Shown here: positions 28,668 through 53,086 of the stretch, piece by piece
How positions within the stretch are numbered: position 1 is the stretch's first letter
How the letters are laid out: each line of letters begins with the position of its first letter
From: Sphingorhabdus sp.
Lineage (GTDB): Bacteria; Pseudomonadota; Alphaproteobacteria; Sphingomonadales; Sphingomonadaceae
Assembly (NCBI RefSeq): GCF_023910635.1
Contig: NZ_JAAVVZ010000006.1
Span: 62,001 to 126,000, forward strand
Direction of reading: 5' to 3'
Length of the DNA stretch: 64,000 nt
Made by a program: the position numbers and the translations under genes
Notes under the pieces: generated by a model
Database searches by the model: none
What the model saw: the letters and a program-made list of their open reading frames with translations, nothing else
Told to the model about the DNA's origin: nothing

Positions 28668-28668
28668 A

Positions 28669-30845: not shown

Positions 30846-30847
30846 TT

Positions 30848-33627: not shown

Positions 33628-33631
33628 TGGA

Positions 33632-37813: not shown

Positions 37814-38261
37814 GGTGCGCCAGCCATTCTGCCAAGTAACGTGCAAAAGGCGCTCCGAAGATGAGCCGAAATTGCTGCTCTTCCCGCCGATGCAACACGA
37901 CCGCAGTTTCGCCCAGTCGCATACGCGCGCAAGTGCCGACAGAAAAGCGCTGCCAGTCGATTGCGATGCCTGCGCTCAGCAGATCAAATACGTTTTCGCC
38001 GGATATGGATAGAGCAACCAGTGCATCCGACATGTCGATTGCATCGGGCCTCGGGCAATGGTTACCGCAAAAGAGCCACTCGCAAGGGCCCATATTTAGC
38101 CACCTGTTCTGTGCTTGTCGGGGACCAGGCAAGCCGGTGAAGTCCGCACCAGGGAGCAATCGCAATCGGGCAAAGCTCAATGCTTCCGCCACGATGACTA
38201 TCCCGTCGCACATGGGAATATCTATGCCCGTCCATGGGGAGGTGGGTTGCCAATCAATCAT
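37806..38261 (-). CDS. soxG: Sarcosine oxidase gamma subunit, short
   Basis: A 151-aa protein overlapping the soxA stop by eight bases and showing SoxG-like traits: a GcvT-like half fold with ARLRLLPGADFTGLPG-type sequence, DMSDALVALSISGENVFDLLSAG and FSVGTCARMRLGETAVVLHRRE. It is shorter than usual SoxG (about 190-210 aa). SoxG forms part of the tetramer interface and the folate site. Confidence 0.8.
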   Translation of the reverse strand: MIDWQPTSPWTGIDIPMCDGIVIVAEALSFARLRLLPGADFTGLPGPRQAQNRWLNMGPCEWLFCGNHCPRPDAIDMSDALVALSISGENVFDLLSAGIAIDWQRFSVGTCARMRLGETAVVLHRREEQQFRLIFGAPFARYLAEWLAHHV

Positions 38262-40926
38262 GGAGCCGCCTGCCGTCCGGATCAAGGAAACAGGGCGCAA
38301 CGATCTTGGCTTCGAATATTTGACCGAGATCGAACAATTTCACTGTTTCGCCAAGGCGCGCGCGGCCCTCGCGAATTCGCGCTAATGCAATGGGTCGTCC
38401 GAGTGTCGGGCTGATGCACGTGCTGGTTACAAAACCACCCGAAGGACAGGGGGCATTGCTGCCCTCCATGATGTGGGCACCGATCGGCAGCGCGTTTGCA
38501 CTTTCCAATCCCACAAGCTGGAGGCGATCCTCCCTGGCGCACGCTGGTCTTAACAATGACCGCCGCCCGACAAAATCTGACGTCTTTTTGGCAATAGCCC
38601 GGCCCAGGCCAATGTCGCCAGGCGTTGTCATGCCATCAGTATCGGCGCCAACATGGACATAGCCCTTCTCGGTGCGCAGCAAGTCCAAGGCCAAAACGCC
38701 AAAGGGTGTGACACCAGCAATGGCCGCCGCCGTTTCCAGCAGGGACTTGACGTATCGCGCTGGCACACTGATTTCGAGTGTTGCCTCGCCTGTATAGCTG
38801 ACCCGCGCCACGCGAACGGGCACGTTACCCAATTGGTCGGCACGAAAATGCATATGTGGCAAGGCTTCAACCGGCAGACCTAGCGCAGTGGCGACCTCGA
38901 TCGCATTCGGTCCACTGAGCGTAACGGTTCCCCATTGCAGTGTGCAATCGAGAACGCGCACATCCCAGCCAGAAAATTCGCATTGCAGCCACTCATCAAG
39001 CATGGCTGCGATCCGCTCTGCGCCGCCGCTTGTCGTATGTAACAGGAAGCGATCTTCGGCCAGACGGATCGCCACGCCATCATCGATTATGACCCCATTC
39101 TCGTCGAGCATCAGGCCATAGCGGATACGGCCAGGATTTAAGGTCGACATCGTGCCTACATAGATAAAGTCGAGAAAGCGGGCCGCGTCCGAGCCCCAGA
39201 CCTCGATCTTGCCCAGTGGTGAAGCGTCGAATAGACCTGCGCTGGTGCGTACTGCTCGTGCTTCACGGATGGCGGCCTCGCCCAAACTCTCACCCGCCTG
39301 CGGATAGGCATCGGGTCGCTGCCAACCATAATCTTCAAAGACAGCGCCGAGCGTCTGGTGCCAGCCATGGGCAGGCAAGAATTTGCGGGGGCGCATCAAA
39401 TTACCGACCCGTGCACCCGAAATCACACCGAAACTGATCGGCGTATAAGGTGGACGAAAGCGCGTCGTGCCGACCGCATCAGGTGTGCGCCCGGTGGCAT
39501 CACCCATCAGCATCAGCCCATTGACGTTGGAAGTCTTGCCCTGGTCAGGACCCATGCCCAGCGTGGTATAGCGTTTCAGATGCTCGACGGACGCATAATT
39601 TTCGCGCGCCGCCAGCATGACATCCGCCGCCGTCACATCATTGGCGAGATCTACGAACGCCTTGCCCTTGGCCCGGCTCTGCCATGGCTGAGTGTTGAGA
39701 TCGAAATCGCCATTGGCGGCCCCAACGCAGCGCACTTGCTGCACCGCTTTGTCAGGCACGAACATCTGGCGCTTGTCACAAAAGCTGATTGATCCACCCG
39801 ATTGTGAGAACAGATGCACCACCGGGCTCCAGCCGCCCGACACAGCGAGCAGGTCACACGCAATTTCGCCCCGGCTGGTCTGCACGGCACGGACCCGCTT
39901 GCGCCCTTTGACGCCGATCACTTCCTCGCCGCGGCGGGTGTCGAGAATAGCCGCTATTTCGATTCCGGCAGCTTCGAATGCAGTGGCATAATCGAAAAGC
40001 CCGTCATTATTGCCGAATAAAGCCACCCTCTTGCCTGCAGCAACCCCAAAGCCATGAGCATAACGTTGCACAGCAGAGGCCAGCATGACCCCAGGAACGT
40101 CATTACCTGGAAATACCAATGGTCGCTCAATAGCGCCTGTTGCGATCACGACTTGCTTGGCCCTGATCTTCCAGAGTCGTTCCTTGGCAACCCCGGATGA
40201 ACAGTCTTCAACCGCAGCGACCAAATTATGATCGTAATAGCCAAATGCCGTTGTTCTTGTGAGGATCGTTAGATTTTCAGTCTGATCGACGTTGATCGCA
40301 TCACCGGCCCACAATGCCCGCCCGCCCAGCTCCGACGACGCCTCAACAAGCATGACGCGCGCACCGCTCTGCGCGGCGTCACGGGCTGCACTGATGCCAG
40401 CCTGGCCGCCGCCAATCACCAACACATCGCAATGGGCATGGCGGTGCTCGTATCGGTCTGGATCGGGCTGCGTGGGTGCCGCGCCGAGCCCTGCTGCCTT
40501 GCGGATCGTGCCTTCAAACAGATGCCAGTGGGGCCACATGAAGGTCTTGTAATAAAATCCTGCCGGCAACAGCCGCGACAGCCTGTCATTGATGGCATAG
40601 AGATCAAAGCCGAGTGATGGCCAGGCATTAACACTGTGCGCCACCAGCCCCTCATAAAGCTCAATCTCGGTCGCCACCCGGTTGGGTGAAAGGTACGCAC
40701 CGATTTCAAGCTGAACGACGGCATTTGGTTCTTCGGCACCGGCTGCAAAAACGCCACGCGGCCGATGATATTTGAAGCTGCGGCCCACCACATCGACACC
40801 ATTGGCAAGCAGGGCCGAGGCGAGCGTGTCGCCAGCAAAGCCCGAAAGGGTGCGGCCATCAAAGCTGAAGCAGAGCGGACGGTTTCGATCAATCCGACCG
40901 CCGCCGGGACGCCGGGCGCCACTCAT
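38254..40926 (-). CDS. soxA: Sarcosine oxidase alpha subunit
   Basis: An 890-aa subunit, somewhat shorter than the usual 965-1000 aa. Order: an N-terminal ferredoxin-like fold (about 1-100, YHRPRGVFAAGAEEPNA), an NAD-binding flavoprotein region (VIGGGQAGISAARDAA near 170), and a C-terminal GcvT-type folate domain (about 490-800, RTSAGLFDASPLGKIEVWG). The tetramer oxidises sarcosine to glycine and transfers the methyl carbon to folate, giving H2O2. The frame is intact. Related secondary N-methyl amines could be the true substrate. Confidence 0.9.
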   Translation of the reverse strand: MSGARRPGGGRIDRNRPLCFSFDGRTLSGFAGDTLASALLANGVDVVGRSFKYHRPRGVFAAGAEEPNAVVQLEIGAYLSPNRVATEIELYEGLVAHSVNAWPSLGFDLYAINDRLSRLLPAGFYYKTFMWPHWHLFEGTIRKAAGLGAAPTQPDPDRYEHRHAHCDVLVIGGGQAGISAARDAAQSGARVMLVEASSELGGRALWAGDAINVDQTENLTILTRTTAFGYYDHNLVAAVEDCSSGVAKERLWKIRAKQVVIATGAIERPLVFPGNDVPGVMLASAVQRYAHGFGVAAGKRVALFGNNDGLFDYATAFEAAGIEIAAILDTRRGEEVIGVKGRKRVRAVQTSRGEIACDLLAVSGGWSPVVHLFSQSGGSISFCDKRQMFVPDKAVQQVRCVGAANGDFDLNTQPWQSRAKGKAFVDLANDVTAADVMLAARENYASVEHLKRYTTLGMGPDQGKTSNVNGLMLMGDATGRTPDAVGTTRFRPPYTPISFGVISGARVGNLMRPRKFLPAHGWHQTLGAVFEDYGWQRPDAYPQAGESLGEAAIREARAVRTSAGLFDASPLGKIEVWGSDAARFLDFIYVGTMSTLNPGRIRYGLMLDENGVIIDDGVAIRLAEDRFLLHTTSGGAERIAAMLDEWLQCEFSGWDVRVLDCTLQWGTVTLSGPNAIEVATALGLPVEALPHMHFRADQLGNVPVRVARVSYTGEATLEISVPARYVKSLLETAAAIAGVTPFGVLALDLLRTEKGYVHVGADTDGMTTPGDIGLGRAIAKKTSDFVGRRSLLRPACAREDRLQLVGLESANALPIGAHIMEGSNAPCPSGGFVTSTCISPTLGRPIALARIREGRARLGETVKLFDLGQIFEAKIVAPCFLDPDGRRLHD

Positions 40927-41198
40927 GCCGCTTGCTCCGGTCTTTGCGCCGTGATTGGATAAACCGCGCGGATCTCATGAGACACCGTATCGCGGATCAC
41001 ATTGAACCAAAGACCGCAACCAAAGCTGTGGCACCATCGCTCGGTCTGGTCACCCTTGGGATTGTCATGACCGAAAAGATACTCCGCCCAGGTCTCACCG
41101 CTGGCGCTTAACGGCGGACGCACGACATGAGCGTCGCCACCGCAGCGAAACTCATGCTCCGGACGAGCTCCACAATGGGGGCACTCAATGTTCAGCAT
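40923..41198 (-). CDS. soxD: Sarcosine oxidase delta subunit
   Basis: A 91-aa zinc protein with the SoxD pattern CPHCGARPEHEF at the start and WAEYLFGHDNPKG, ERWCHSFGCGLWFNVIRDT in the second half; Cys and His residues form the zinc site. Length and sequence are diagnostic. It lies seven bases after soxB and overlaps soxA by four, the usual B-D-A-G order. Confidence 0.93.
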   Translation of the reverse strand: MLNIECPHCGARPEHEFRCGGDAHVVRPPLSASGETWAEYLFGHDNPKGDQTERWCHSFGCGLWFNVIRDTVSHEIRAVYPITAQRPEQAA

Positions 41199-41205
41199 GA
41201 CTTGC

Positions 41206-42456
41206 TCAATGGGGAATACTCGCCGCCGCAGCCTCGTCGATCAGCGCCCCTGTGTCGAAACGATCAAGCCCAAAGGCCGCATTAAGCTCGTGCGGCTCGC
41301 CGGTCGCCATAGTGTGGGCAAGGCAATAGCCGCCGGCGGGGATGGCCTTGAAACCACCCGTACCCCAGCCACAGCTAAGATAGAGGCCCTGTACCGGCGT
41401 TTTGCCAATAATCGGACTTGAATCGTGCACAACATCGCAGACGCCGCCCCAGTGGCGCAGCATCCGCACCCGCGAGAATGTCGGAAACATGGCGAGCATG
41501 CCAGTAATGGTATTTTCGTTAACGGGCAGATTGCCACGCTGGGCATAGCTTGCATAAAGATCAAGCCCGCCGCCGATCACCAGCTCACCCTTGTCAGACT
41601 GACTGAGATAAGTGCCCGTTGCCGGTGAAAGTACAACGGTATCCAATACCGGCTTTAGCGGCTCAGACACCATAGCCTGAAGCGCATAGCTTTTGACCGG
41701 CAGCCGAAAGCCCGCTTTTGCAGCCAGAATCGAACTATGCCCCGCAACGGCAATCCCGATCCGGTTCGATTTGATCGCGCCGCGCGTGGTCTCGACTCCA
41801 GTCACCTGGCCCTGATGGATGGTGAAACCGGTTACTTCGCAATTCTGGATGATATCAACGCCGCGCGCATCCGCCGCGCGGGCATAGCCCCAGGCGACAG
41901 CATCATGCCGCGCCGTCCCACCACGCCGCTGGATCATGCCGCCCCAGATTGGGAAGCGGGCCTGTGGCGAACAGTCGAGTGCCGGCACAAGTTTTGCCAC
42001 CTCGTCGCGGCTCAAGATATCGGCATCAATGCCATTTAATCGCATGGCATTTGCGGAGCGCCGATGCATTTCCATGTCGTGCCGCGAATGCCCAAGGACG
42101 AGCACGCCGCGCTGGCTGAACATGATGTTGAAATTCAGCTCGCTGGACAGTCTTTCATACTGCTTAAGCGAAAATTCGTAAAAGGCCGCGCTTTCAGGAT
42201 AAAAATAGTTGGATCGGATAATGGTCGTGTTGCGCCCGGTATTACCGCCGCCGATCCAGCCTTTTTCAAGCACTGCCACTTTTACAAGGCCATGCACGCG
42301 AACGAGATAATAGGCTGTAGCAAGACCATGCCCTCCGCCTCCGATCACAATCGCGTCATAGGCCGCTGCAGGTTCGGGTGATCGCCAGGCTGGGTCCCAG
42401 TTGCTATGACCTGACAGCGCATTGCGTGCTATGGACAAGGCAGAATAGTGACTCAT
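41206..42456 (-). CDS. soxB: Sarcosine oxidase beta subunit
   Basis: A 416-aa DAO-family flavoprotein with the dinucleotide motif VIGGGGHGLATAYYL (about residues 37-51) and GGTARHDAVAWG (about 179-190), whose His184 fits the position of covalent FMN attachment in heterotetrameric sarcosine oxidases. It holds the amine-oxidising active site. It is the first gene of the long minus-strand operon; the start codon lies four bases from the 36-bp palindromic operator, so the leader is very short. Confidence 0.93.
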   Translation of the reverse strand: MSHYSALSIARNALSGHSNWDPAWRSPEPAAAYDAIVIGGGGHGLATAYYLVRVHGLVKVAVLEKGWIGGGNTGRNTTIIRSNYFYPESAAFYEFSLKQYERLSSELNFNIMFSQRGVLVLGHSRHDMEMHRRSANAMRLNGIDADILSRDEVAKLVPALDCSPQARFPIWGGMIQRRGGTARHDAVAWGYARAADARGVDIIQNCEVTGFTIHQGQVTGVETTRGAIKSNRIGIAVAGHSSILAAKAGFRLPVKSYALQAMVSEPLKPVLDTVVLSPATGTYLSQSDKGELVIGGGLDLYASYAQRGNLPVNENTITGMLAMFPTFSRVRMLRHWGGVCDVVHDSSPIIGKTPVQGLYLSCGWGTGGFKAIPAGGYCLAHTMATGEPHELNAAFGLDRFDTGALIDEAAAASIPH

Positions 42457-42459
42457 GCA

Positions 42460-42495
42460 GGCTTGCTACCATACATATATGTATGGTAGCAAGCC
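42460..42495. promoter_or_regulatory. TetR-type operator 1: perfect 36-bp palindrome
   Basis: The 36 bases are exactly self-complementary, with core CCATACATATATGTATGG in the centre and GCTTGCTA arms outside it. It lies between the divergent soxB and M19 genes and must cover both promoters. The core recurs near 43561, 46475 and 50680. Confidence 0.85.
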
Positions 42496-42514
42496 ATTGA
42501 TGGAGGAACCGGCT

Positions 42515-43519
42515 TTGAAACCAGAAATGCTAGATATCGCACGAGAAATTGTCAGGACCTCATTGGTCTGGGACAATCATGCCTGCATGCCACTGCGCCC
42601 AGAAGATCACAGCTTTCTGCCACAACTGGAGGACGTCCGTGCGTCGGGCGTTAATGTCATCAGCTTGAATGTGGGCTTCGGCCCACAAGGACCCGACGAA
42701 CATCTAGCGATGCTCGACAGTTTCTCCAATTGGGTATCATCGCACTCGGACGACTATCTGTTGATCCAGTCGATTGCGGATGTTGAGACCGCGCAGAAGT
42801 CCAAACGGTTAGGCGTGATATTTGATGTCGAGGGTATGGTGCCGCTGGACAATGGTCGGATCGATCTGGTCGAAGCTTTCCGTACCAGAGGTGTGGGCTG
42901 GATGCTCGTTGCATACAACCGCAATAATGACGCCGGCGGCGGCTGCGCTGAGGAAGAGGATGTTGGGCTGACCGTCTATGGACGCAAAGTCATTGCGGAG
43001 ATGAACCGGGTGGGCATGATTGTCTGTTGTTCCCACACCGGGCACCGGACGGCGATGGAAGTGATGGAGGCATCCTGCGATCCTGTCATTTTCTCGCACT
43101 CCAATGCAAAGGCCATTTGGGACCATTATCGCAATATTCCTGACGAACTAATTAAGGCCTGCGCAGCAACAGGAGGGGTTGTCGGCGTTAACGGGCTGAG
43201 TAGTTTCCTCGGCAATCGCGATGCCTCACCGGGCCGGGTTGCCGAACATATAGACCATATGGTGCAACTCGTTGGTCCAGCGCATGTAGGCATTGGCCTC
43301 GATTATGTCTTTGATCGCAAGGAACTGGAAGAATATCTGGCGACAATGAAAGAGACCTTCCCCAATGATGCATCTTTGCAGGAACCCATGGATTTTGCAC
43401 ATCCGTCCCAAATGGCCGAAATCGCGGCGCATCTGCTTGAGCGTGGCTATTCCGACTCAGATGTTCGTCTGATCCTTGGCGGCAACTGGTTGCGTGTGGC
43501 CGCTGCGGTCTGGCGATAA
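42515..43519 (+). CDS. M19 membrane-dipeptidase family enzyme
   Basis: A 334-aa M19 amidohydrolase from TTG 42515, chosen because GGAGG stands eight bases upstream; the longer reading from ATG 42455 would translate the operator palindrome. Metal and active-site residues are seen in WDNHACMP, DVEGM, CCSHTGHRT, SHSNAKAIWDH and GIGLDYVFD. The usual HxD metal motif is HAC, a variant. M19 enzymes split dipeptides, including those with a C-terminal D-residue. No signal peptide is visible, so it is probably cytosolic. Confidence 0.85.
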   Translation: MKPEMLDIAREIVRTSLVWDNHACMPLRPEDHSFLPQLEDVRASGVNVISLNVGFGPQGPDEHLAMLDSFSNWVSSHSDDYLLIQSIADVETAQKSKRLGVIFDVEGMVPLDNGRIDLVEAFRTRGVGWMLVAYNRNNDAGGGCAEEEDVGLTVYGRKVIAEMNRVGMIVCCSHTGHRTAMEVMEASCDPVIFSHSNAKAIWDHYRNIPDELIKACAATGGVVGVNGLSSFLGNRDASPGRVAEHIDHMVQLVGPAHVGIGLDYVFDRKELEEYLATMKETFPNDASLQEPMDFAHPSQMAEIAAHLLERGYSDSDVRLILGGNWLRVAAAVWR

Positions 43520-43550
43520 ACGGGCCAAGTTTTCCCTTTGGATTATTGCC

Positions 43551-43579
43551 TTGCCCTCGGCCATGCACATATGTATGGA
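43551..43579 (+). promoter_or_regulatory. Promoter and operator 2 before the TonB receptor
   Basis: The operator CCATGCACATATGTATGG (43561-43578) matches the consensus with two changes in the left arm. A candidate -35, TTGCCC (43551-43556), is 17 bases from TATGGA (43574-43579), so the operator would cover the spacer and -10. The same TTGCC-operator layout recurs at 50672. Confidence 0.65.
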
Positions 43580-43628
43580 ATAAACGTACAGGAGTGTATT
43601 GAACAAAATCATCTGATTGGAGGCAGTT

Positions 43629-45767
43629 ATGGGTGGGGAGAAATTTCGTTCAGCGTTTGGAGTGTCAATCATTGCAGTCTGCAGTGCGATGACGGCAGCA
43701 ATGCCTGCTTCCGCGCAAGAAGCAGATGAAGAGCTCAAGGACCGGACCGAGATCGTCGTCACGGCGCAGCGCCGTGAAGAGCGTTTGCAGGATGTACCGA
43801 TCGCGATCAGCGCTGTAACAGCCGAGGACTTTGAGCAGCGCGGCGCGCGGCGGCTTCAGGATTTGCAGTTCAGCATTCCGGGACTCAACATCGTTGAAAC
43901 CAGCCCCGGTTCGGAGCGGCTTCAGATCCGTGGAATCTCCCAGCAGGCTGGCCTGCCGACCGTCGCGACCTATATCGACGAAATGAACATGAACCCGAAC
44001 GCGGTGACCGGCGGCGTCGATATCCGTTCGGTCGACCTTGAGCGGGTGGAAGTGCTGAAAGGTCCGCAGCCGACGCTTTACGGCGAAGGATCAATGGGCG
44101 GGACAATCCGCTATATTACCGCCAATCCCGATCTCGACGATCTGGCAGTGCGCGGCTCCGCTGAAATCGGCACTATCAAGAACGGCAACACCGCCTATCG
44201 CGCTGAAGGCGCGGCTAGTGTGCCGATTGCGCCGGGAACATTCGCGGTGCGTGTGGCTGGTGCTTATGAATATTCCGGCGGCTATATCGACACACCCCGT
44301 GGTGATGACCAGAACGGCACGCGTTACAAAACGGCGCGTATCAAGGCGCTTTTCAAGCCATCAGAGACATTTAACCTTTCAGCGATGTTCATGCACCATG
44401 AATGGGACCAGAAGGACGCGAGCTATGGGTTCGCCGATGGAACCTATAATGTTGCCGGCATCTTCGCGCAGCCGGCGAAAGGTCAATATGATGTGGCGAA
44501 TCTGGTGGGAACGATCGATCTTGGCTTTGCCGACTTCACAAGTTCGACCGGCTACCTGAGCTCCAAGAGTCGGCTCGATGTTTCCTTTCCATTCGCCTTT
44601 CCACTGCCCGGCGGCGTCCTTTTGCCCTTAGGCAGCAGCTCACGTTCCGCCGGCGAGTTCGAACGGTGGACCCAAGAGTTCCGTCTGACGTCTTCCGGTA
44701 CAGGCCCGTTCAAGTGGCTGCTGGGGGCAACATACACGGACGACAAGAGTAAATCCGGTTTTTCAGTTCTGCCTGTGACTACCCCGATCGTGCTGGCACC
44801 CGGCCAGACATCGAAAGCTTGGGCCGTCTATGGCGAAGGTTCATACACCTTGGGCGTCGCCACACTTACTTTGGGCGGTCGTTACTATAGCGACAAGCGG
44901 AGCGATGCGGCGCGAACCACTACGAACACGTTCAATACATTTAATCCGCGCGTCAACCTGTCAGTGGAGACAGGAGACAATGGCCTTATCTATCTAAACG
45001 CCTCGAAAGGCTTTCGAAGTGGTGGCTTCAATACACCTGGGCTATTTGCGCCCGGCGAAGGAACATACGCTCCCGAGAAGTTGTGGACCTATGAGGCCGG
45101 CTTCAAGCAGCAATTCCTGGATCGCGCTCTAAGCCTTGAAGGCGCAGTTTTCTATCACGACTACAATGATATCCAGTCAATCCTGCTGCCAATCGACAAC
45201 TCACCCCGCATCGGGCGAACCATAAACAGCGGCGTTGCTCGGGGCTGGGGCCAGGAACTGTCAATCGTCGCGCGCCCAGACCGCGCGTTTACGGCCACCT
45301 TCGCCGTCGGTCACAATGACCTGTCCTATCGGTCGACCAGTCTTGCAGTCCGGCCCGGAGACAGGCTTGACAACGTGCCCACTTGGACGTGGTCAGCGGC
45401 AGTCGATTATCGCAAGCCCGTAAACGACAAGGTGACACTGTTTGCAAATGCCAGTCTTGCATCAACTTCCGGGTTCACCAGTACCCTGCGTCTCTTCGGT
45501 GATCAGACATTAAATGGAGTGTTTGTACCGGGCCTCAGCATCGTTCAGCGCGATGGAACCCGCTTCCCGACCGTTGTCAGGGCATTGTCGCGTGAGATCG
45601 TCAATGCTAGGATTGGTGCGGATTTTGGCGCAATTACGGCCTATGTATATGGTCAGAATCTGACCAACAATTTTGACTCGGTCTATGCAGGTGGCGTGAT
45701 TCAGGCGAGCCAAGGCGCAAGGCCGCGACCAAGAACATTTGGCGCGGGCTTGTCCTTCAATTTCTGA
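43629..45767 (+). CDS. TonB-dependent outer-membrane receptor
   Basis: A 712-aa receptor with a signal peptide ending near PASAQ, a TonB-box-like EIVVTAQRREERLQDVPIAIS, a plug domain (about 50-160, with VEVLKGPQPTLYGEGSMGGTIRYIT) and a 22-strand barrel ending in LSFNF with a terminal Phe. Such receptors take up ligands too large for porins. GGAGG lies five bases before the ATG. Placement among peptidases makes a peptide-like ligand likely. A clear terminator follows. Confidence 0.92.
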   Translation: MGGEKFRSAFGVSIIAVCSAMTAAMPASAQEADEELKDRTEIVVTAQRREERLQDVPIAISAVTAEDFEQRGARRLQDLQFSIPGLNIVETSPGSERLQIRGISQQAGLPTVATYIDEMNMNPNAVTGGVDIRSVDLERVEVLKGPQPTLYGEGSMGGTIRYITANPDLDDLAVRGSAEIGTIKNGNTAYRAEGAASVPIAPGTFAVRVAGAYEYSGGYIDTPRGDDQNGTRYKTARIKALFKPSETFNLSAMFMHHEWDQKDASYGFADGTYNVAGIFAQPAKGQYDVANLVGTIDLGFADFTSSTGYLSSKSRLDVSFPFAFPLPGGVLLPLGSSSRSAGEFERWTQEFRLTSSGTGPFKWLLGATYTDDKSKSGFSVLPVTTPIVLAPGQTSKAWAVYGEGSYTLGVATLTLGGRYYSDKRSDAARTTTNTFNTFNPRVNLSVETGDNGLIYLNASKGFRSGGFNTPGLFAPGEGTYAPEKLWTYEAGFKQQFLDRALSLEGAVFYHDYNDIQSILLPIDNSPRIGRTINSGVARGWGQELSIVARPDRAFTATFAVGHNDLSYRSTSLAVRPGDRLDNVPTWTWSAAVDYRKPVNDKVTLFANASLASTSGFTSTLRLFGDQTLNGVFVPGLSIVQRDGTRFPTVVRALSREIVNARIGADFGAITAYVYGQNLTNNFDSVYAGGVIQASQGARPRPRTFGAGLSFNF

Positions 45768-45782
45768 CGAAACGGCTATTCT

Positions 45783-46430
45783 TTATTGAGACAGCGCGTC
45801 CTTCGGGGCGCGCTGTTTTTTTGTCGACTGGCGCTGCTCCAAATCCGCCACCACGGCCTCAAGCGCGCTACCGCCTTCGTTGCCTAACATGATCGCGTTA
45901 TAATATGGCAGGAAGGCCAAACGTTCTTGCATTGGCTCATCAAATGCAGTCGCATAATAACCTACTTGTTGGAGATATATTATGCGAGCGCGGGCAACGC
46001 TTTCGCGTTCTCTTTGGCCTTCCATGCGAAATCGTTCGGCTAGGAAATTAATCCAGCGATGATCGATTGCACGCACGATCTTGGCTACGGCAGGCGATTT
46101 CCAGGCCCAGAAACGAATTGCCATATCAAATGCGGGATAGGTTGCATCTTCGCTCAACCAGATCCGAGCAATCTCAAACGCGCCCATTGATGCCCAACGG
46201 GTGTCGGCTTGCTGCAGCTCGCTCTCCTTATGCTCCTGCCAAAGCTGGAGCACCGCATCGAGCAAGTCTTTCCTATTCTTGAAGTGCCAGTAAAAACTGC
46301 CGCGCGTGACCTTCATCTTGCGGGCAAGGCGATCAACTTTGAGCTCGTCAACGCCTGAGATAATCAGTTGCCTGCGTGCAGCTTCGATCCAGTCGACACG
46401 CGAAAGCTGCCTTGGCGTTTTATTTTGCAT
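45783..46430 (-). CDS. TetR-family regulator of the island
   Basis: A 215-aa TetR protein with an N-terminal helix-turn-helix (RKMKVTRGSFYWHFKNRKDLLDAVL, about residues 35-60) and a C-terminal ligand domain. The start at ATG 46430 is supported by AGGA nine bases upstream. An inverted repeat of the island's operator type lies 45 bases upstream, suggesting autoregulation. It sits downstream of, and could be read through from, the MFS-DUF885-hydrolase operon. The inducer is probably a substrate or breakdown product. Confidence 0.9.
   Translation of the reverse strand: MQNKTPRQLSRVDWIEAARRQLIISGVDELKVDRLARKMKVTRGSFYWHFKNRKDLLDAVLQLWQEHKESELQQADTRWASMGAFEIARIWLSEDATYPAFDMAIRFWAWKSPAVAKIVRAIDHRWINFLAERFRMEGQRERESVARARIIYLQQVGYYATAFDEPMQERLAFLPYYNAIMLGNEGGSALEAVVADLEQRQSTKKQRAPKDALSQ
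45791..45822 (+). terminator. Rho-independent terminator of the TonB receptor gene
   Basis: An 11-bp stem (ACAGCGCGTCC with GGGCGCGCTGT, one G-T pair) closes a TTCG loop and is followed by seven T. It lies inside the 3' end of the converging tetR gene and works only for the plus strand, as no T-run follows on the other strand. Confidence 0.85.
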
Positions 46431-46474
46431 TAATGCGTTTCCTAAAGAGACACTGTCGCCATTGCCGCATTTGC

Positions 46475-46501
46475 GACCATACATCAATGCACTGTATGGT
46501 C
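46475..46501. promoter_or_regulatory. Operator 3 before tetR, wider half-site spacing
   Basis: GACCATAC (46475-46482) and GTATGGTC (46494-46501) are perfect inverted repeats 11 bases apart, against 6 at the other sites. The left half also continues as CCATACAT. It is 45 bases before the tetR ATG and overlaps the stop of the hydrolase gene. Confidence 0.65.
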
Positions 46502-47633
46502 AGCCGCTCGGCTGGCTTGCCCGTTCCAGAACATCACCCACAAAATCCGCTTCTTCGTATACGAACTGGTGCGTTGATCCTTCTGGAGCGTAGATGCGTT
46601 TTGATCGCGACGATATCGCTAAATAGCGTTCCCGGCTGCGGGCGAAGAAATTGATCATGCGCGCTTGCTCTCGGCAGGATGCGGCGCCGACCTCTTCATT
46701 GTCTGCCACTTCTGCCGCATTGGGCGGAGCCACAAGCCAGACCTCCATATCCCCCAGATCGCCATCATAGACAACAGTTTCCCAACCACATGTGCCGACA
46801 TGGGGGCCAAGAAGCTCATGATAGATTGAGTAATGGGAAAATTGCGAACCCGCGGAGACATCGATCGCATTCAGCTTTTTATAGGCTTCCGCACCCAGCT
46901 GCTGTTCAAAGCGCTGCGCCATTGCGGCAAAGGCCGGGTTGCGACGCGCTTGGCGCGCCTCAAGATTGATATGGATGCCAAACAAGCGCGACAGACCTGC
47001 CCACAGGGCATTGCGCAGCATGCCGCGAATGGTGCCTAGCCTTGGACCAAACACGATGGTCTCGAGCGGAGTCGGATCAAGCAGGACAAGTCGTGCCACC
47101 TTTTCAGGATAACGGCGCGCAATATTGGCTGCCAGCAATCCACCAAAGGAATATCCAACAAGAACAAAGGGACCCAACTCTCCTGCGAGTTCAAGCACTC
47201 GCATCATTTCATCGGCTTCGCGAGCTGTGGTTCGCGGGAATGGACCGGTGTCGCTCCAACCCGTGCCGGGGCGATCGATCAGGATCGAACGACACTTATG
47301 CTTAAGCCTTTCATGGAGATGGGACATCGCCAACCCTGGGGCATGGCCTCCCCCGAACATGACAAGCGGGACTCGATCCTTACGTTCCCCTTCAGCGAGA
47401 ATGTGAACGCAATAGCCCCCCAGATCGATCCGCCGTCCAGGTGCTGGATGGAGACGGCCAATATGCGCACGAAAAATCAGATGCCAGACATTGCCGAACC
47501 CCAGCACCAGCGCAATGCCGATCATGACCACACCCAGCCAGCCACCGACGAGCCAGCCGCCCGGCGCTAAGATAGCCGCGATCGCAAGGCCTGACCATTC
47601 GCGTGCCAGGCAAGACAAAAGCCAGTTAGGCAT
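46500..47633 (-). CDS. Alpha/beta-hydrolase with N-terminal membrane segments
   Basis: A 377-aa serine hydrolase with two hydrophobic segments (about residues 13-55) before a catalytic domain carrying GYSFGG (nucleophile) and LLDPTPLET. Oxyanion-type GGGH precedes it. The ATG at 47633 overlaps the DUF885 stop by eight bases, so it is third in the MFS-DUF885-hydrolase operon. Membrane tethering suggests work at the inner membrane near the carrier. Its bond type (ester or amide) is unknown. Confidence 0.8.
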   Translation of the reverse strand: MPNWLLSCLAREWSGLAIAAILAPGGWLVGGWLGVVMIGIALVLGFGNVWHLIFRAHIGRLHPAPGRRIDLGGYCVHILAEGERKDRVPLVMFGGGHAPGLAMSHLHERLKHKCRSILIDRPGTGWSDTGPFPRTTAREADEMMRVLELAGELGPFVLVGYSFGGLLAANIARRYPEKVARLVLLDPTPLETIVFGPRLGTIRGMLRNALWAGLSRLFGIHINLEARQARRNPAFAAMAQRFEQQLGAEAYKKLNAIDVSAGSQFSHYSIYHELLGPHVGTCGWETVVYDGDLGDMEVWLVAPPNAAEVADNEEVGAASCREQARMINFFARSRERYLAISSRSKRIYAPEGSTHQFVYEEADFVGDVLERASQPSG

Positions 47634-49320
47634 TGTGCGCACCCTCAATTGCCAAGTCGATCCGTTCGGCCAGCAGCGCGAAGGGCATGGCCCCACCACT
47701 CAGCACCAAATCATGGAATGCGCTGACGTGAAACTTTTCGCCAAGTGCGGACGCCATGCGCGCACGCAGGCGCATCATTTCCTCATGCCCCGACATATAA
47801 GCCAGTGCTTGCCCAGGCACATCGCAGGCATAACGCAGCGTTTCGCTTCCAATCTCGGTTTCCGGGAAAAAACTGTTGTCGCGCATATAGGCCCGCGCCT
47901 TTTCAAGACTCCAGCCCAGCGCGTTCATGCCCGTGTCAACCACCATTCGACAAGCCAGGAAAGCCTGGCTAACCAGTCGCCCAAACCGCTCGGCGGGATC
48001 TGCATACATGCCCATTTCGCCCGCCAGGGTCGCCGCATATTCAGCCCAGCCTTCGGTAAAGGCGGTAGGGAAGGACGCGCCGCGAAGCGCGGGCAGCGCG
48101 AGATTGTCGCCTTGCAGGGCGAGATGCAAATGATGGCCTGGTACCAGCTCGTGATAGTTGAGCGCTGCGAGATGGAACAGGCCTGCCTTTGACAGATTTC
48201 GGCCGTTGAACACATAGTCCCCGTGGCGCTTGTCAGGCCTTGGGCCATCATAAAAGCCAAACGTCATCGACGCTGTGAGAGCTTCGGGGAGTGGCCGCAC
48301 GCCATAGGTGGCATCCGGCCGCACCGGAAACAACGTTTCAACATGCGGTTCAAACCGTTCTACATAGCGTTCAAAACGCGCCTGAATGGCCGCGTCACTG
48401 TCGTCGCGCCAGACAGAATCTGCATCAAGATGTGCACGATATTCGGCGTCGCTTCCGGCAAAACCTGCATCCTTGCGTGCCCCCGCCATTTCGCCGCGAA
48501 TTCGAGCGACGGCGTCCAGTCCGATATCATGCAGTTCCTGCGGCGAGAGCCGGGTTGAGGTGTGCAGCCTCGCAAGTTCGGCGTAGATGTCTGCCCCATT
48601 GGGAAAGTGCATCATGCCGACAGTATCGCCTGCCTTACCGAAGTAAGCGGTGTCGAACACACCACGACAGCGCTCCAGTGCCGCGACCAAGGTGTTGGAG
48701 ATAGTCTGTGCAACCTCACTGCGAAAAGCTTCATGCCCCACCAGTCGCGCTTCATCGACGTGCAAGGTGTCCGGCTGCGTTGCAATCAGGCGATCAAGCA
48801 AACTGAGTGCCGCCTCAGCTTGTGCACGCGGAAGATATATGCCGCGATCTGCCTGACCGCGCGTGCGGTCTCCCATGGCTTCGACAAAGCTCGCAATATC
48901 AGCTATGCCTGCCAGGTAGCGAAAGCGATCCCCTTCCGTATCGAGCGGTGCCCGTGCAAGTCGCCCTGCCATCGCCGAAATCGCATATCCCATGCAATAA
49001 GCCGTTGGCCCGAACATGTTGAACAGGCCTGAGAGCGGGTCAAACACGGTCCAATACCAGTCCGCTCGAACCGAGCAGATATGCGCATGTTCGCGCGCCA
49101 GCTTCAGCGTTAAGGCAAGCTCCGATGGCAACCCGCAAGGATCAAGTGCATCCATACGCCGCAGCAACGAAGCGCCCCAAGTCGCGGACCGCTGCGCGGC
49201 CTCGAAGGTCGGCAACCGCAGCGCCGCCTTCTCAGGCCATAATTTTTCTTGCTCGATTTCATCGCGGACATCGTCGATAATCCGCACTGCAAGACCAATT
49301 TTGTCTGGAACCATGTTCAT
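47626..49320 (-). CDS. DUF885 metallopeptidase-like protein (first copy)
   Basis: A 564-aa DUF885 protein with the zinc-type motif HELVPGHH and the downstream FTEGWAEYA segment that carries the third ligand. DUF885 enzymes are predicted metallopeptidases with few characterised members. No signal peptide is visible. It overlaps the MFS gene by four bases and the hydrolase by eight. A second, divergent copy lies at 51413-53086. Confidence 0.85.
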   Translation of the reverse strand: MNMVPDKIGLAVRIIDDVRDEIEQEKLWPEKAALRLPTFEAAQRSATWGASLLRRMDALDPCGLPSELALTLKLAREHAHICSVRADWYWTVFDPLSGLFNMFGPTAYCMGYAISAMAGRLARAPLDTEGDRFRYLAGIADIASFVEAMGDRTRGQADRGIYLPRAQAEAALSLLDRLIATQPDTLHVDEARLVGHEAFRSEVAQTISNTLVAALERCRGVFDTAYFGKAGDTVGMMHFPNGADIYAELARLHTSTRLSPQELHDIGLDAVARIRGEMAGARKDAGFAGSDAEYRAHLDADSVWRDDSDAAIQARFERYVERFEPHVETLFPVRPDATYGVRPLPEALTASMTFGFYDGPRPDKRHGDYVFNGRNLSKAGLFHLAALNYHELVPGHHLHLALQGDNLALPALRGASFPTAFTEGWAEYAATLAGEMGMYADPAERFGRLVSQAFLACRMVVDTGMNALGWSLEKARAYMRDNSFFPETEIGSETLRYACDVPGQALAYMSGHEEMMRLRARMASALGEKFHVSAFHDLVLSGGAMPFALLAERIDLAIEGAHNA

Positions 49321-50657
49321 GCCTGTTGGCCGCCATTCGCCCGCATGATAGTTTGAGGTAGGCCCTTAAGACCCCAGGCCAGGAACAAGATACCGCCAAG
49401 CAAACCGGGTATCACGATTATCGCCACCGCCAGCAAAATACCCCTGTGGCCCGGGAAAAACTGGTCTGATAACAAGCCGACAACCCATGGCATGAACGAT
49501 GCAAAAATGATTGTCACCATGCCGCCGACGGCGACGACCCGACCGCGCAAATGGGCCGGTGCCATCAACTGCAATACCGTTGGCGCAAGCGAATTGGCCA
49601 TGAAGGTGAAACAGATTTTGGCAAGAATGGTGGCGTAGAATTGTTCCGCTGTCACCACAAGGGGGATAGGCAGCGACACGATAAGAGAAGCGGTCAGCGC
49701 CGCCACGGCTACCCGCATCGGGGTGTTGTCACCATAACGCGGACGCAGCAGCTTTACGACAATCCACGCCATGCCAACACCGGCCAACGCGGCAACACCG
49801 CCGGCCACTCCCAGCGTTTGCCCAATCTGCATCGGCGTTTGACCAAAGACACGCTGCAATATCACAGCGTTCCATTGCCCCTGTGCACCCATCGCCGCAT
49901 AGCTCAAGCCGAAACCAAAGAAGATACCCGCTGTCGTTCGGGCATTGGTACGAAAATAGTCGACCACGCCTTCGACCGCTTCGCCCGCCTTGGATGGCGG
50001 CGTTATACGCTTTAAGCGCATGAGCAGGATTAGCATCGCCAGGATTGGCCCCGTCAGGGCAGCAAGGATCAGGGTAATGCGCCACGGCTCCAGTCCTGCC
50101 AACCAAACCGGCAGGCTTTGCGCGTTGGCAGCCGCCACGCCAAACAAGGTTCCTCCCAGCGCCATCCCAAGATAGGTGCCCAGCAGCGTCGCCGAGACGA
50201 AAATCAGATTGGCCGTGACCCAGCGGTCTTTGGGAAAGAGATCCGGAATCATTGAATTGGTGACCGGCCCAAGTACCGCCTCCCCAAAGGCGATGCCCAT
50301 GGCGAAGAACACAAGACCAGTGAAGGTGTCGGAGAGGCCAAAACCCACCGTTGCCGCAGACCAGATCATCACGCAGCCCGCCAGTAACCAGCGCCGGTCT
50401 ACCCGGTCAGCAAGCCAGCCTATGGGATAGCTGGCGATCGCGACCACAAAAGTAAGCGCAAGCCCGGTAATGATACCCAATTCCCCGTCAGTCAGCTTGA
50501 GCGATTGCTTCATCGACTCCGCAACCAGCGAGATCAGACCCTTTCCGATGAGCGAGCCAATGACCGATGCCAGCACAACAACCGCAAGGCCATACCAAGC
50601 CCAACCAAGCGGCTGTTCAGGCTGCTGCTGGTCTGCTGCGGTCGCATCTATGCTCAT
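49317..50657 (-). CDS. MFS transporter, inner membrane (second copy)
   Basis: A 446-aa, 12-helix permease with the loop motif GWLADRVDRRW. The ATG at 50657 is backed by GGTGGGAG eight bases upstream; the longer frame reading from 50753 would pass through the operator. It begins the minus-strand half of the second divergent unit and probably imports a peptide or product. Similar in plan to the carrier at 30848-32152. Confidence 0.86.
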   Translation of the reverse strand: MSIDATAADQQQPEQPLGWAWYGLAVVVLASVIGSLIGKGLISLVAESMKQSLKLTDGELGIITGLALTFVVAIASYPIGWLADRVDRRWLLAGCVMIWSAATVGFGLSDTFTGLVFFAMGIAFGEAVLGPVTNSMIPDLFPKDRWVTANLIFVSATLLGTYLGMALGGTLFGVAAANAQSLPVWLAGLEPWRITLILAALTGPILAMLILLMRLKRITPPSKAGEAVEGVVDYFRTNARTTAGIFFGFGLSYAAMGAQGQWNAVILQRVFGQTPMQIGQTLGVAGGVAALAGVGMAWIVVKLLRPRYGDNTPMRVAVAALTASLIVSLPIPLVVTAEQFYATILAKICFTFMANSLAPTVLQLMAPAHLRGRVVAVGGMVTIIFASFMPWVVGLLSDQFFPGHRGILLAVAIIVIPGLLGGILFLAWGLKGLPQTIMRANGGQQA

Positions 50658-50671
50658 ACCTAACTCCCACC

Positions 50672-50699
50672 TTGCCTGAACCATACATTTATGTATGGT
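50672..50699. promoter_or_regulatory. Operator 4 with promoter between MFS and IYD-like genes
   Basis: ACCATACATTTATGTATGGT (50680-50699) is a perfect inverted repeat with a TT centre. TTGCCT (50672-50677) stands where a -35 would be for the plus strand, with TATGGT 16 bases on. The layout copies that before the TonB receptor. The site can serve both divergent units. Confidence 0.78.
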
Positions 50700-50741: not shown

Positions 50742-51416
50742 ATGAAGCCGCATGATACAATCCCCTGGATCGCCTATCCAGACATGTCCGTCGAAGAGCG
50801 CATCGCTGCAACCAAAGACTTTTACGACTCAATCAAAACGCGGCGCACCTGTCGCTTCATCGGTGGTGGGCCCCTGGCCCGCGAAGCTATCGAAACGGCA
50901 ATCATGGCGGCGGGGACGGCACCTTCGGGCGCCAATCACCAGCCTTGGCATTTTGCACTGGTGACTTCGCCCGAGGCCCGACACCGTATCCGGATTGCGG
51001 CAGAGGAAGAAGAGCGCATTTTCTATTCAGGCAAGGCCGGGAAAGAATGGCTTGAAGCATTGGCCCCTCTCGGTACCGATGATGACAAGGCTTATCTGGA
51101 CGCAGCGCCGCTCATCATTGCGGTCTTTGGGCAACGCAAAGGCGGTCTTTACCCAGGCGAGATGCGCCAGAATTATTATATGCACGAAAGCGTCGGCATT
51201 GCCTGCGGTTTCCTTTTGGCGGCGCTTCATGCTGCCAAGTTTGCCACCCTCACACATACGCCCAATCCGATGAATTTCCTCAACGAAATCTGCGGTAGAC
51301 CGGCCAACGAGAAGCCGGTGATGCTGATCGTGGTCGGCCATGCAGAAGCGGATGCCTCCATCCCTGTCCATGCAACCATCAAGAAACCCTTTGACCAAAT
51401 CGCCAGCTGGATATGA
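50742..51416 (+). CDS. Iodotyrosine deiodinase-like flavoprotein (nitroreductase fold)
   Basis: A 224-aa nitroreductase-fold protein that matches the iodotyrosine deiodinase (IYD) group along its length: FYDSIKTRRTCRF, AGTAPSGANHQPW, EEEERIFY, KAYLDAAP, THTPNPMNFL, RPANEKPVML and KKPFDQI. The three residues that hold the halotyrosine zwitterion in human IYD (Glu157, Tyr161, Lys182) have counterparts: Glu and Tyr in EEEERIFY and Lys in DDKAYLD. IYD removes halide from halotyrosine with FMN. Other substrates remain possible. The ATG 50742 start lies behind operator 4; its stop overlaps the DUF885 gene by four bases. Confidence 0.82.
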   Translation: MKPHDTIPWIAYPDMSVEERIAATKDFYDSIKTRRTCRFIGGGPLAREAIETAIMAAGTAPSGANHQPWHFALVTSPEARHRIRIAAEEEERIFYSGKAGKEWLEALAPLGTDDDKAYLDAAPLIIAVFGQRKGGLYPGEMRQNYYMHESVGIACGFLLAALHAAKFATLTHTPNPMNFLNEICGRPANEKPVMLIVVGHAEADASIPVHATIKKPFDQIASWI

Positions 51417-53086
51417 ATGCATCTGCCTCTCTTGCCGCGCTGACGGATCGCTATTGGGCATTTGAGCGCATTGAAAACGGCCTGAGTGCATTTCTCGCAG
51501 GGGATGATACGGGCGAACCGATCCTGTTGCGTGAGAGCGCAAACGATTATGCCCGCCGCGATCAGGCGGCGGCCGACTTTCTGGACCAGCTTGCGGCCAT
51601 TCCCCTTGCGGAGCTTGAGGCAACCGAAGCCGCTACCCACATTTTGTTGGAGCGCGAGCTGCGGTTGATTCGCGATAACTACGCGCTCGGCACCCATCTG
51701 CGCCCATCGCTGCTGCCGGTTGGCCCCGATTTCAGTACCGTATTTTTTGCCAATGCCGTAACGCTCAGCGATGTGGCGGCAGCCGAACTCTATGTCGAAC
51801 GCCTAGCCCAATTCCCTGCGTTTCTGGCCGATGTGCGCTATTGCCTCTTGATGGGCCACGCACAGGGCGTGCGCTATCCCCGTCTGGTGCTGGAGGCGGC
51901 GGCTCGTAATTCTGTCGGTATTGCCAGCATCAAAGCCGAAACATCACCTTGGTACGCCCCTTTTGCAAAGAGCCCGCTGGCCGGAACAGCAAAAATGGAA
52001 ACTCAAGCCGAGAGAGCAAAGGCGTTGATTGCCGATGCGCTGCTCCCGGCACTGAGCGCTTACGCCGACACTATAGCTGGCCCCCTGATGGAGGGCGCAC
52101 GCGATACCCTGTCGTGCGGCGATATGCATTATGCGCTGATGATCCGGCAGTTTACCTCCACCGACATGTCGGCACAGGCGATTCATGATCTTGGCATGGC
52201 TGAAACCACCCGGATCGAAGCCGATATGGCCGTGCTGGCAAAGGATGCGGGATTTGGTGCAGATGTGTCTGGATACCGTCGCTTTCTGGCCACAGACGGG
52301 CAGTTCATTGCCGCAGACGCCAACAAATTGCGCGAGCGCGTCGAGATATTGTGCAAGCGGATCGATGCCAAAATTCCTGCCTATTTCAGGCGCATTCCCC
52401 GCATCACCTATGGCGTGGACGTTGCGCCTGCCGCCATGTCTGCCAATCTACCGCCCGCTTATGCGCAGCCCGCGCCATCAGGCGGGAACAGCCCCGGCAT
52501 TTTCTGGGTCAATGGCCTGCCGGAAAAATGCCCGACATATATTCTACCGGCGATGGCCGTGCATGAAGCATGGCCCGGCCATCTGATGCACATTGGCATG
52601 ATGGCGGAGTTGGAGCATCTGCCCGCTTTTCGCCGCAACGGCGCCATCAAATACACTGCCTGTATCGAAGGCTGGGCGCTCTATTGCGAACAGCTTGGGA
52701 TCGAACTTGGCGTTTATACGACGCCGCATGAACATTTCGGGCGGCTGGAGATGGAAATGTGGCGCGCCTGTCGGCTGGTTGTCGATACCGGGATTCACGC
52801 CTTCAACTGGTCGCGCGAGCAGGCGATTGCATTTTTATCCGATCGTCTTTCGCTGTCGCCCGAAACGATTGCAGCAGAAGTGGACCGCTACATCGCGCTG
52901 CCCGGTCAGGCGCTGGCCTATCATATCGGCGGGATCAGGGTCCGGGCGATGCGCGGGCGGGCGGAGGCAGCGCTGGGTGATGCGTTCGATCTGCGCCATT
53001 TCCATGAGGTCTTCATGAGCGCGGGCCCAGCCACATTGCCTGTACTCGATCATGTGATCGATGCCTGGATTGCGGAAGCGGCCTGA
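51413..53086 (+). CDS. DUF885 metallopeptidase-like protein (second copy)
   Basis: A 557-aa DUF885 protein with the zinc-type motif HEAWPGHLMH and EGWALYCEQLG downstream. It is clearly related in plan to the first copy (47626-49320) but distinct in sequence, so the two may cut different bonds. No signal peptide. It overlaps the IYD-like gene by four bases and precedes the hydrolase by three. Confidence 0.85.
   Translation: MNASASLAALTDRYWAFERIENGLSAFLAGDDTGEPILLRESANDYARRDQAAADFLDQLAAIPLAELEATEAATHILLERELRLIRDNYALGTHLRPSLLPVGPDFSTVFFANAVTLSDVAAAELYVERLAQFPAFLADVRYCLLMGHAQGVRYPRLVLEAAARNSVGIASIKAETSPWYAPFAKSPLAGTAKMETQAERAKALIADALLPALSAYADTIAGPLMEGARDTLSCGDMHYALMIRQFTSTDMSAQAIHDLGMAETTRIEADMAVLAKDAGFGADVSGYRRFLATDGQFIAADANKLRERVEILCKRIDAKIPAYFRRIPRITYGVDVAPAAMSANLPPAYAQPAPSGGNSPGIFWVNGLPEKCPTYILPAMAVHEAWPGHLMHIGMMAELEHLPAFRRNGAIKYTACIEGWALYCEQLGIELGVYTTPHEHFGRLEMEMWRACRLVVDTGIHAFNWSREQAIAFLSDRLSLSPETIAAEVDRYIALPGQALAYHIGGIRVRAMRGRAEAALGDAFDLRHFHEVFMSAGPATLPVLDHVIDAWIAEAA

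What the first reader, a model, noticed from the sequence alone, without database searches (positions are those of the whole stretch)
42460..50699. One TetR regulon defined by four copies of a new operator
An inverted repeat with consensus CCATACATNNATGTATGG occurs at 42460-42495, 43561-43578, 46475-46501 and 50680-50699. These are the promoter regions of the sox operon/M19, the TonB receptor, tetR itself, and the MFS/IYD-like divergent pair. I noticed no other copy in the window. Before the receptor and the IYD-like gene the site has the same arrangement behind a TTGCC -35. So a single local TetR protein would control roughly 27 genes over more than 30 kb, covering uptake, hydrolysis and oxidation.
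Basis: partly seen in the sequence, partly recalled or inferred. Interest (0 to 1): 0.85.

Follow-up and report, generated by a model that had tools for sequence, protein, structure and literature searches.

The report
TetR operators across peptide-breakdown gene cluster
A repressor gene and five copies of its likely DNA-binding site sit at the promoters of one gene cluster that seems to import, cut up and oxidise unusual (perhaps N-methylated) peptides, and the same pairing of repressor and site recurs beside N-demethylation genes in many other bacteria.

Summary
Genome-wide the palindrome occurs three times at up to 2 mismatches, all in this cluster. The tetR-proximal copy has a 9-bp spacer, not 4, and is the only exact match of that form in the genome. 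Relative G044 has a site at the same four promoters, again with the 9-bp spacer at tetR.

The local TetR is very probably the binder. In 32 genomes carrying its subfamily, 50 of 64 exact ATACA-N4-TGTAT palindromes lie within 20 kb of it, 0.97 expected. In 80 named loci 57 of 76 lie within 300 bp upstream of tetR, 2.4 expected. Sarcosine-oxidase-, MttB- or DAO-like genes flank it in 70 of 80 loci.

Best reading: an autoregulated repressor of N-methyl amine or amino-acid catabolism, here controlling 24-25 genes, about 30 kb, for peptide uptake, hydrolysis and oxidation. Binding, repression, ligand and substrate are inferred. The operator belongs to a widespread TetR group, not only to this locus.

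The parts
42460..42495 (.). Operator 1, perfect 36-bp palindrome (core CCATACATATATGTATGG 42469-42486), between divergent soxB (-) and M19 (+)
   Evidence: a site with 1 half-site mismatch at the same place in G044
43561..43578 (.). Operator 2a, CCATGCACATATGTATGG, 5' of the TonB receptor
   Evidence: G044 has a site there
43584..43601 (.).
   Evidence: third-best window position with a matrix from other genomes; 0.003 expected per 64 kb; not evident in G044
46475..46501 (.). Operator 3, GACCATACA-N9-TGTATGGTC, 45-71 bp upstream of the tetR ATG, overlapping the abh1 stop codon
   Evidence: only exact match of this form in the genome; 9-bp spacer also in G044; weak by the n=4 matrix (0.24 expected per 64 kb)
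50680..50699 (.). Operator 4, ACCATACATTTATGTATGGT, between divergent MFS2 (-) and the IYD-like gene (+)
   Evidence: G044 has a site there; a 9-of-12 promoter-like match on the - strand (50707-50680) overlaps it
45783..46430 (-). tetR repressor gene (215 aa, ATG start chosen), last gene of the MFS2 unit
   Evidence: Pfam TetR_N 43 bits, cut-off 24; subfamily
46500..47699 (-). alpha/beta hydrolase (abh1; longest frame)
   Evidence: Pfam
47626..49320 (-). DUF885 protein a
   Evidence: Pfam
49317..50657 (-). MFS transporter 2 (start chosen at ATG 50657)
   Evidence: Pfam; start by sequence, frame checked
50742..51416 (+). iodotyrosine-deiodinase-like nitroreductase (start chosen at ATG 50742)
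   Evidence: Pfam; PDB matches 5ko7 'Nitroreductase' E 6.1e-55 and 'Iodotyrosine dehalogenase 1' 4ttb E 3e-44
51413..53086 (+). DUF885 protein b
   Evidence: Pfam
53090..53857 (+). alpha/beta hydrolase (abh2)
   Evidence: Pfam
53851..55890 (+). M3 oligopeptidase
   Evidence: Pfam
42515..43519 (+). M19 dipeptidase (start put at TTG 42515 by a GGAGGA before it; ATG 42500 also possible)
   Evidence: Pfam; start inferred from sequence and G044
43629..45767 (+). TonB-dependent receptor (start chosen at ATG 43629)
   Evidence: Pfam
41206..42456 (-). soxB, sarcosine oxidase beta
   Evidence: TIGR01373 691 bits, cut-off 529; PDB 1vrq_B E 3.5e-143
40923..41198 (-). soxD, sarcosine oxidase delta, 91 aa
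   Evidence: PF04267 107.6 bits, cut-off 27
38254..40926 (-). soxA, sarcosine oxidase alpha
   Evidence: SO_alpha_A3 and GCV_T domains; TIGR01372 1096 bits, below cut-off 1164
37806..38300 (-). soxG-like frame in the gamma position, 164 aa
   Evidence: PF04268 SoxG only 13.3 bits, cut-off 21; 29-30% identity over 83-113 aa to frames beside soxA in G055 and G093
36530..37846 (-). beta-lactamase-fold serine hydrolase
   Evidence: Pfam
34516..36548 (-). dgcN and dgcA homologues (N-acetyl-D-Glu route)
   Evidence: DgcA 401 bits, cut-off 400; DgcN 445 bits, cut-off 480
25960..34534 (-). rest of the sox unit: esterase, M32, MFS1, M20, ELFV dehydrogenase, 447-aa orphan, GlcD-like FAD dehydrogenase; joins overlap or are 1 bp (longest frames)
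23519..25342 (-). M24 aminopeptidase, membership uncertain (617-bp gap)

Best explanation
The TetR protein is a dimeric repressor that binds ATACA-N4-TGTAT inverted repeats, here in the form CCATACA-N4-TGTATGG. By blocking overlapping promoters it holds down two divergent pairs (soxB/M19 and MFS2/IYD-like), the TonB-receptor promoter (two stacked sites) and its own internal promoter (a variant site with a spacer 5 bp longer). An N-methylated amino acid or amine derived from the imported peptide would be the inducer, since the same TetR group sits next to N-demethylation enzymes elsewhere. Release switches on 24 (or 25) genes for uptake, peptide hydrolysis, and oxidation of N-methyl and D-amino acids. 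Shown: the sites, their rarity, their conservation and their tie to the TetR group. Inferred: binding, repression, ligand, substrate and operon extent.
For: Rarity: 3 places genome-wide at <=2 mismatches, all here; the N9 form at tetR is the only exact one. G044, TetR 72% identical, has a site at the same four promoters. A matrix from 41 sites of other genomes (own and G044 left out; some sites come from near relatives of each other) ranks the five sites first in 64 kb. 50 of 64 exact palindromes in 32 TetR-bearing genomes lie within 20 kb of a subfamily TetR, 0.97 expected. In 80 named loci 57 of 76 lie within 300 bp upstream of tetR, 2.4 expected, 51 of them at -34 to -101. Spacing: n=4 45 times, n=9 5 times, other spacers 0-2 times in 39 neighbourhoods; n=4 76, n=9 7, others 0-2 in the 80 loci. 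Neighbours: sox-, MttB- or DAO-like genes in 70 of 80 loci. Peptide clusters with 2-5 exact sites recur in G321, G362, G345 and G332, and with one in G121.
Against: 16 of 38 subfamily TetRs have no exact palindrome within 20 kb; some have 2-3-mismatch sites nearby, and G055 has CATAGGG-type palindromes instead. 28 of 80 named loci lack an exact site. 4 of 17 loci of more distant TetRs carry the same palindrome with no sox, MttB or DAO hit in their roughly 3.5 kb, so the operator is not unique to the N-methyl subgroup. 10 of 80 loci have no such gene. The tetR site has another spacer, and in three of the five N9 cases the N9 reading comes from an extra half-site beside a normal site. Some sites fall inside the longest frames as I drew them. 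Promoter scans give no more than chance. Operon continuity rests on gene spacing. No ligand or binding data.
Confidence: 0.8

Rival explanations
1. The palindromes are operators of another regulator encoded elsewhere, and the local tetR is only one of its targets.
For: No binding data; the half-site CATACA/TGTATG also resembles the AcrR operator as I recall it (recall, no call). More distant TetRs also have it nearby (4 of 17).
Against: In 80 loci from several classes what recurs is this tetR with the palindrome just upstream (57 of 76 sites within 300 bp), while the other neighbours differ (sox, MttB, DAO). The own genome has one match to this TetR at E<=0.001.
Confidence: 0.1
2. The inverted repeats act as RNA hairpins (terminators, attenuators or stability elements), not protein sites.
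For: The 36-bp perfect palindrome and the tetR repeat could fold as hairpins; the tetR repeat overlaps the abh1 stop codon.
Against: The four centre bases vary between sites while the spacing stays at 4; sites lie between divergent genes or just before start codons; none was called by the terminator scan, which needs a T run and a short loop.
Confidence: 0.05
3. The regulon is real but smaller: TetR controls soxBDAG, M19, the receptor and the MFS2 and IYD units; the distal sox-unit genes (serine hydrolase to glcD, M24) have their own control.
For: G044's contig ends in soxB, so the long downstream part is not confirmed by a relative. The two relatives of the 447-aa orphan that I fetched have no exact site near it. 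Many other sox operons with this TetR show no peptidase homologues in the stretch fetched.
Against: Of the 13 joins from soxB to glcD, 12 overlap or are 1 bp and one is 7 bp (longest frames); the only minus-strand promoter-like hit there is one 9-of-12 match at 35052-35025, 4 found against 7.9 expected on both strands.
Confidence: 0.3

Closest known systems
TetR/AcrR-family local repressors (AcrR, TtgR, MtrR, TetR)
   Same: HTH of the TetR_N family; best PDB profile matches are unnamed TetR-family regulators, TtgR and MtrR; palindromic sites at divergent promoters and near its own gene
   Different: Far below the cut-offs of all nine NCBIfam families listed (best 42 bits against 265); several promoters of a catabolic island instead of one pump operon (the latter recalled)
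PheR regulon of Sphingobium sp. SHPJ-2 (IclR family; PMC13273656, passages read)
   Same: One repressor couples TonB-receptor uptake and a catabolic operon in a sphingomonad
   Different: IclR family, 44-bp GC-rich protected region, phenanthrene substrate
Sox control by SoxR and sigma-54 in Bacillus thuringiensis (PMC4941409, title and start of abstract only)
   Same: Control of sarcosine oxidase genes
   Different: Different host and scheme; I did not read how SoxR is classified
DgcN-DgcA D-glutamate catabolism
   Same: Adjacent dgcN and dgcA homologues in the sox unit
   Different: Embedded in a peptide and N-methyl module; DgcN is below its cut-off

Membership tests
TetR family of repressors | TetR_N helix-turn-helix | tested here: met
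   PF00440 43 bits, cut-off 24
TetR family of repressors | binds a palindrome near its own gene | tested here: inconclusive
   Palindrome present and tied to the subfamily; binding itself cannot be tested here
AcrR/TtgR/MtrR/TetR equivalogs | NCBIfam cut-off | tested here: not met
   TetR 42 of 265, MtrR 39.8 of 280, AcrR 36.6 of 271 bits; no TtgR model was among the families listed
Heterotetrameric sarcosine oxidase (soxBDAG) | SoxB profile | tested here: met
   TIGR01373 691 bits, cut-off 529; 1vrq_B
Heterotetrameric sarcosine oxidase (soxBDAG) | SoxD profile | tested here: met
   PF04267 107.6 bits, cut-off 27
Heterotetrameric sarcosine oxidase (soxBDAG) | SoxA profile | tested here: not met
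   TIGR01372 1096 bits, cut-off 1164; SO_alpha_A3, Fer2_4, GCV_T and GCV_T_C domains over their Pfam cut-offs
Heterotetrameric sarcosine oxidase (soxBDAG) | SoxG profile | tested here: not met
   PF04268 13.3 bits, cut-off 21
Iodotyrosine deiodinase (IYD) | strong sequence match to solved IYDs | tested here: met
   4ttb and 3gb5 'Iodotyrosine dehalogenase 1' E 3e-44; best hit 5ko7 is titled 'Nitroreductase', E 6.1e-55
Iodotyrosine deiodinase (IYD) | active-site lid residues and deiodinase activity | not tested
   no residue-level comparison made
DgcN/DgcA D-Glu catabolism | both equivalog cut-offs | tested here: not met
   DgcA 401 bits, cut-off 400 (met); DgcN 445 bits, cut-off 480 (not met)

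The most novel reading that the evidence does not exclude
A widespread, so far undescribed TetR group senses N-methylated amino acids or amines through ATACA-N4-TGTAT sites, and in sphingomonads it has been recruited to run a whole programme for eating non-ribosomal (for example cyanobacterial) peptides rich in N-methyl, D- and halogenated residues: receptor, transporters, peptidases, N-demethylase, D-Glu route and an IYD-like dehalogenase under one switch.
Probability: 0.22. Interest if true: 0.75.

Novelty: new member of a known kind. Interest (0 to 1): 0.5.

Why it matters
It gives a testable operator and regulon for a TetR group found beside N-demethylation genes in many Proteobacteria. 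It also turns a loose set of peptidases, transporters and oxidases into one co-controlled pathway whose substrate can be sought by asking what releases the repressor.

Tried and rejected
Sigma-70 and terminator scans of the cluster gave no more than chance, so promoter positions stay unproven. Microcystin as substrate: the MlrC_C family is in 5 of 20 genomes searched (G044, G321, G454, G332, G594) and not in the own genome, so it is only a lead; the named TetR loci include Sphingosinicella microcystinivorans and Sphingopyxis microcysteis. A single-sequence fold of the 447-aa orphan was useless (mean pLDDT 35). The orphan is rare: 2 genomes besides the own in the order-level sample of 396 at E<=1e-10, next to a glcD homologue in one of the two; in the family-level sample of 199 only one weak match besides the own. 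Literature: nine searches in all. Six aimed at the regulator or operator, one each at DgcN/DgcA (38), bacterial IYD clusters (50) and microcystin degraders (54). None of the listings showed me a TetR regulator of sarcosine oxidase or this operator; several lists were cut, 'TetR' as a word start also matches 'tetra-' words, and most subscription journals are not held. PMC12478193 (glycine betaine demethylation, searched for four terms) does not contain the word TetR.

An earlier count said 17 of 19 close site pairs are offset by 20 or 22 bp; the recount is 16 of 19.
Full report
What is there. The window lies in a 190,610-base contig of a 3.05-Mb genome in 89 contigs. It is by its relatives a sphingomonad: the same-genus genome G044 carries the 72% TetR on a 12,540-base contig, and names a contig of that length and match as a Sphingomonadales MAG. 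With up to 3 mismatches the 18-mer is found 4 times in the window against 0.14 expected. In the whole genome it is found 3 times at <=2 mismatches, all in this cluster, and 8 times at <=3, four here; the reversed control gives 2. The four others lie in long stop-to-stop frames. The exact core ATACANNNNTGTAT occurs twice in the genome, both here (control also 2).

Anatomy of the sites. 42460-42495 is a perfect 36-bp palindrome between soxB and the M19 dipeptidase. 50680-50699 lies between MFS2 and the IYD-like gene. The receptor promoter has two sites: 43561-43578 and, unreported, 43584-43601, 23 bp further on. The tetR site, 46475-46501, keeps the half-sites but has a 9-bp spacer; CCATACA-N9-TGTATGG matches exactly only there in the genome, the next three places have 2 mismatches, and the total at <=3 (50) is no more than control (48). 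A matrix from 41 exact-core sites of other genomes' TetR neighbourhoods, leaving out this genome and G044, scores 50681, 42469, 43584, 43561 and 46477 as the five best positions of the 64 kb. Numbers found per 64 kb in 300 Markov replicates at or above scores 27, 19.5, 14.3 and 11.5 are 0, 0.003, 0.07 and 0.24. So the tetR copy is weak by this matrix and rests on its exact 9-bp arms and its recurrence in G044. The 41 training sites are not independent, as some genomes are near relatives of each other.

Conservation. G044 carries abh2, DUF885b, IYD-like, MFS2, DUF885a, abh1, tetR, receptor, M19 and soxB in the same order, with best pieces 69-88% identical; M3 was not found at the far end, and DUF885a matched in two pieces. 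It has a site at each of the same four promoters: CCAAACAGTAGTGTATGG, CCATACAGACATGTATGG, CCATACAGAACTGTATGG and, at tetR, AACATACA and TGTATGTT around a 9-bp spacer. The second receptor site is not evident there, and TTGCC in front of the sites is not kept.

Who binds. A profile of six TetR sequences (A1) matches 40 of 397 family-level and 38 of 396 order-level genomes at E<=1e-20, with a gap between about 150 and 121 bits (in most genomes only 8 candidates were scored). I took the 38 TetRs above that gap or, for G044 and G031. In the 32 genomes that carry them the exact core occurs 64 times (reversed control 27); in 32 genomes without a subfamily member it occurs 23 times (control 39). Of the 64, 23 lie within 500 bp, 47 within 10 kb and 50 within 20 kb of a subfamily TetR; 0.04, 0.49 and 0.97 are expected if uniform. 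22 of 38 TetRs have at least one within 20 kb and 16 have none. Some of the 16 have 2-3-mismatch versions near tetR or sox, and G055 has CATAGGG-type palindromes, which looks like a changed specificity.

Wider set. 52 of 80 hold an exact palindrome; spacer counts are n=4 76, n=9 7, all others from 0 to 19 at most 2. 57 of the 76 lie within 300 bp upstream of the tetR match, 2.4 expected. Of 19 close pairs of sites, 16 are offset by 20 or 22 bp, about two turns of DNA, much like the 23-bp pair in this window and in G074 and G068. Against specificity: 4 of 17 loci of more distant TetRs also hold the palindrome.

What the group regulates. At E<=1e-15 tblastn finds a match to soxA, soxB, an MttB-like methyltransferase or a DAO oxidase in 70 of the 80 loci: MttB 35, DAO probe 30, soxA 30, soxB 19 (Pfam identity of the probes). 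soxB and DAO are related families, and some soxA matches are only 27-30% identical, so these are homology classes rather than confirmed functions. At the stricter E<=1e-20, 28 of 80 have soxA or soxB. PurU-, FolD- and Rieske-like neighbours were recognised by eye from translations. The common theme is N-demethylation. In a second set of sphingomonads exact sites stand near the starts of TonB receptors, DUF885, M3, M19 or alpha/beta hydrolase genes: G321 (5 sites), G362 (4), G332 (3), G345 (2), G105 (2), G121 (1) (some sites fall inside the longest frames as drawn). So a multi-site peptide regulon is recurrent and not peculiar to this strain.

The regulon here. Sox unit: soxB, soxD, soxA, soxG-like, serine hydrolase, dgcN, dgcA, esterase, M32, MFS1, M20, ELFV dehydrogenase, 447-aa orphan, GlcD-like dehydrogenase: 14 genes, 12 of 13 joins overlapping or 1 bp and one of 7 bp, by longest frames. 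soxD is confirmed by profile, soxG is not. Then M19 and the receptor; MFS2, DUF885a, abh1, tetR; IYD-like, DUF885b, abh2, M3. Total 24, 25960-55890. The M24 gene follows after 617 bp with what looks, by eye, like a broken small gene between, so its membership is open. tetR is the last gene of the MFS2 unit, so it would answer to its own internal site and to the site at the head of the unit.

Mechanism (inferred). The sites lie just before start codons or between divergent starts, so block of RNA polymerase is the simplest reading, with induction by a pathway compound. The company the TetR group keeps points to an N-methylated amine or amino acid. Unexplained: why the tetR site has a spacer 5 bp longer, half a turn, in both species, and whether it binds one dimer or two offset dimers. 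The 9-bp spacer also appears in G454, G125 and G093, but there through an extra half-site next to a normal site.

Known and new. TetR repressors with several local operators are a known kind (recall). PheR (IclR family) couples TonB-receptor uptake and a catabolic operon in a sphingomonad (PMC13273656, passages). What I did not find in six searches (long lists seen only at the top) is this operator or a TetR regulator of sarcosine oxidase; the library is open-access only. Strain B-9, close to S. microcystinivorans, hydrolyses cyclic and linear peptides (PMC5852478, passages), which fits a peptide regulon in that species but was not linked there to these genes.

Noticed in passing
window 27324-28667: 447-aa orphan with no Pfam or NCBIfam match and no credible PDB match in the middle of the sox unit; 2 genomes besides the own in a sample of 396, beside a glcD homologue in one.
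   Followed up: partly
window 50742-51416: Nitroreductase close to iodotyrosine deiodinases inside a bacterial peptide cluster; recurs with 54-57% identity in the G321 and G362 clusters.
   Followed up: partly
window 25342-25960: Stretch between glcD and M24 reads like a broken small gene (by eye).
   Followed up: no
window 56190-58623: Integrase-core transposase and a frame with transposase-type HTH domains right after the cluster, suggesting a mobile edge.
   Followed up: no
L009, about 1369-1418: G055, TetR 38% identical beside soxBA, has two CATAGGG palindromes instead of the usual site: a possible natural change of TetR specificity.
   Followed up: partly
L156, L169, L174, L179, L190 and 11 other loci: Tandem ATACA-N4-TGTAT sites upstream of tetR offset by 20 or 22 bp, 16 of 19 close pairs.
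   Followed up: partly
G321:C2, G454:C30, G044:C28: MlrC_C-family genes on the same contig as a subfamily TetR in G321 (about 45 kb away) and G454 (about 65 kb), and on another contig of G044; also in G332 and G594, none in the own genome.
   Followed up: partly
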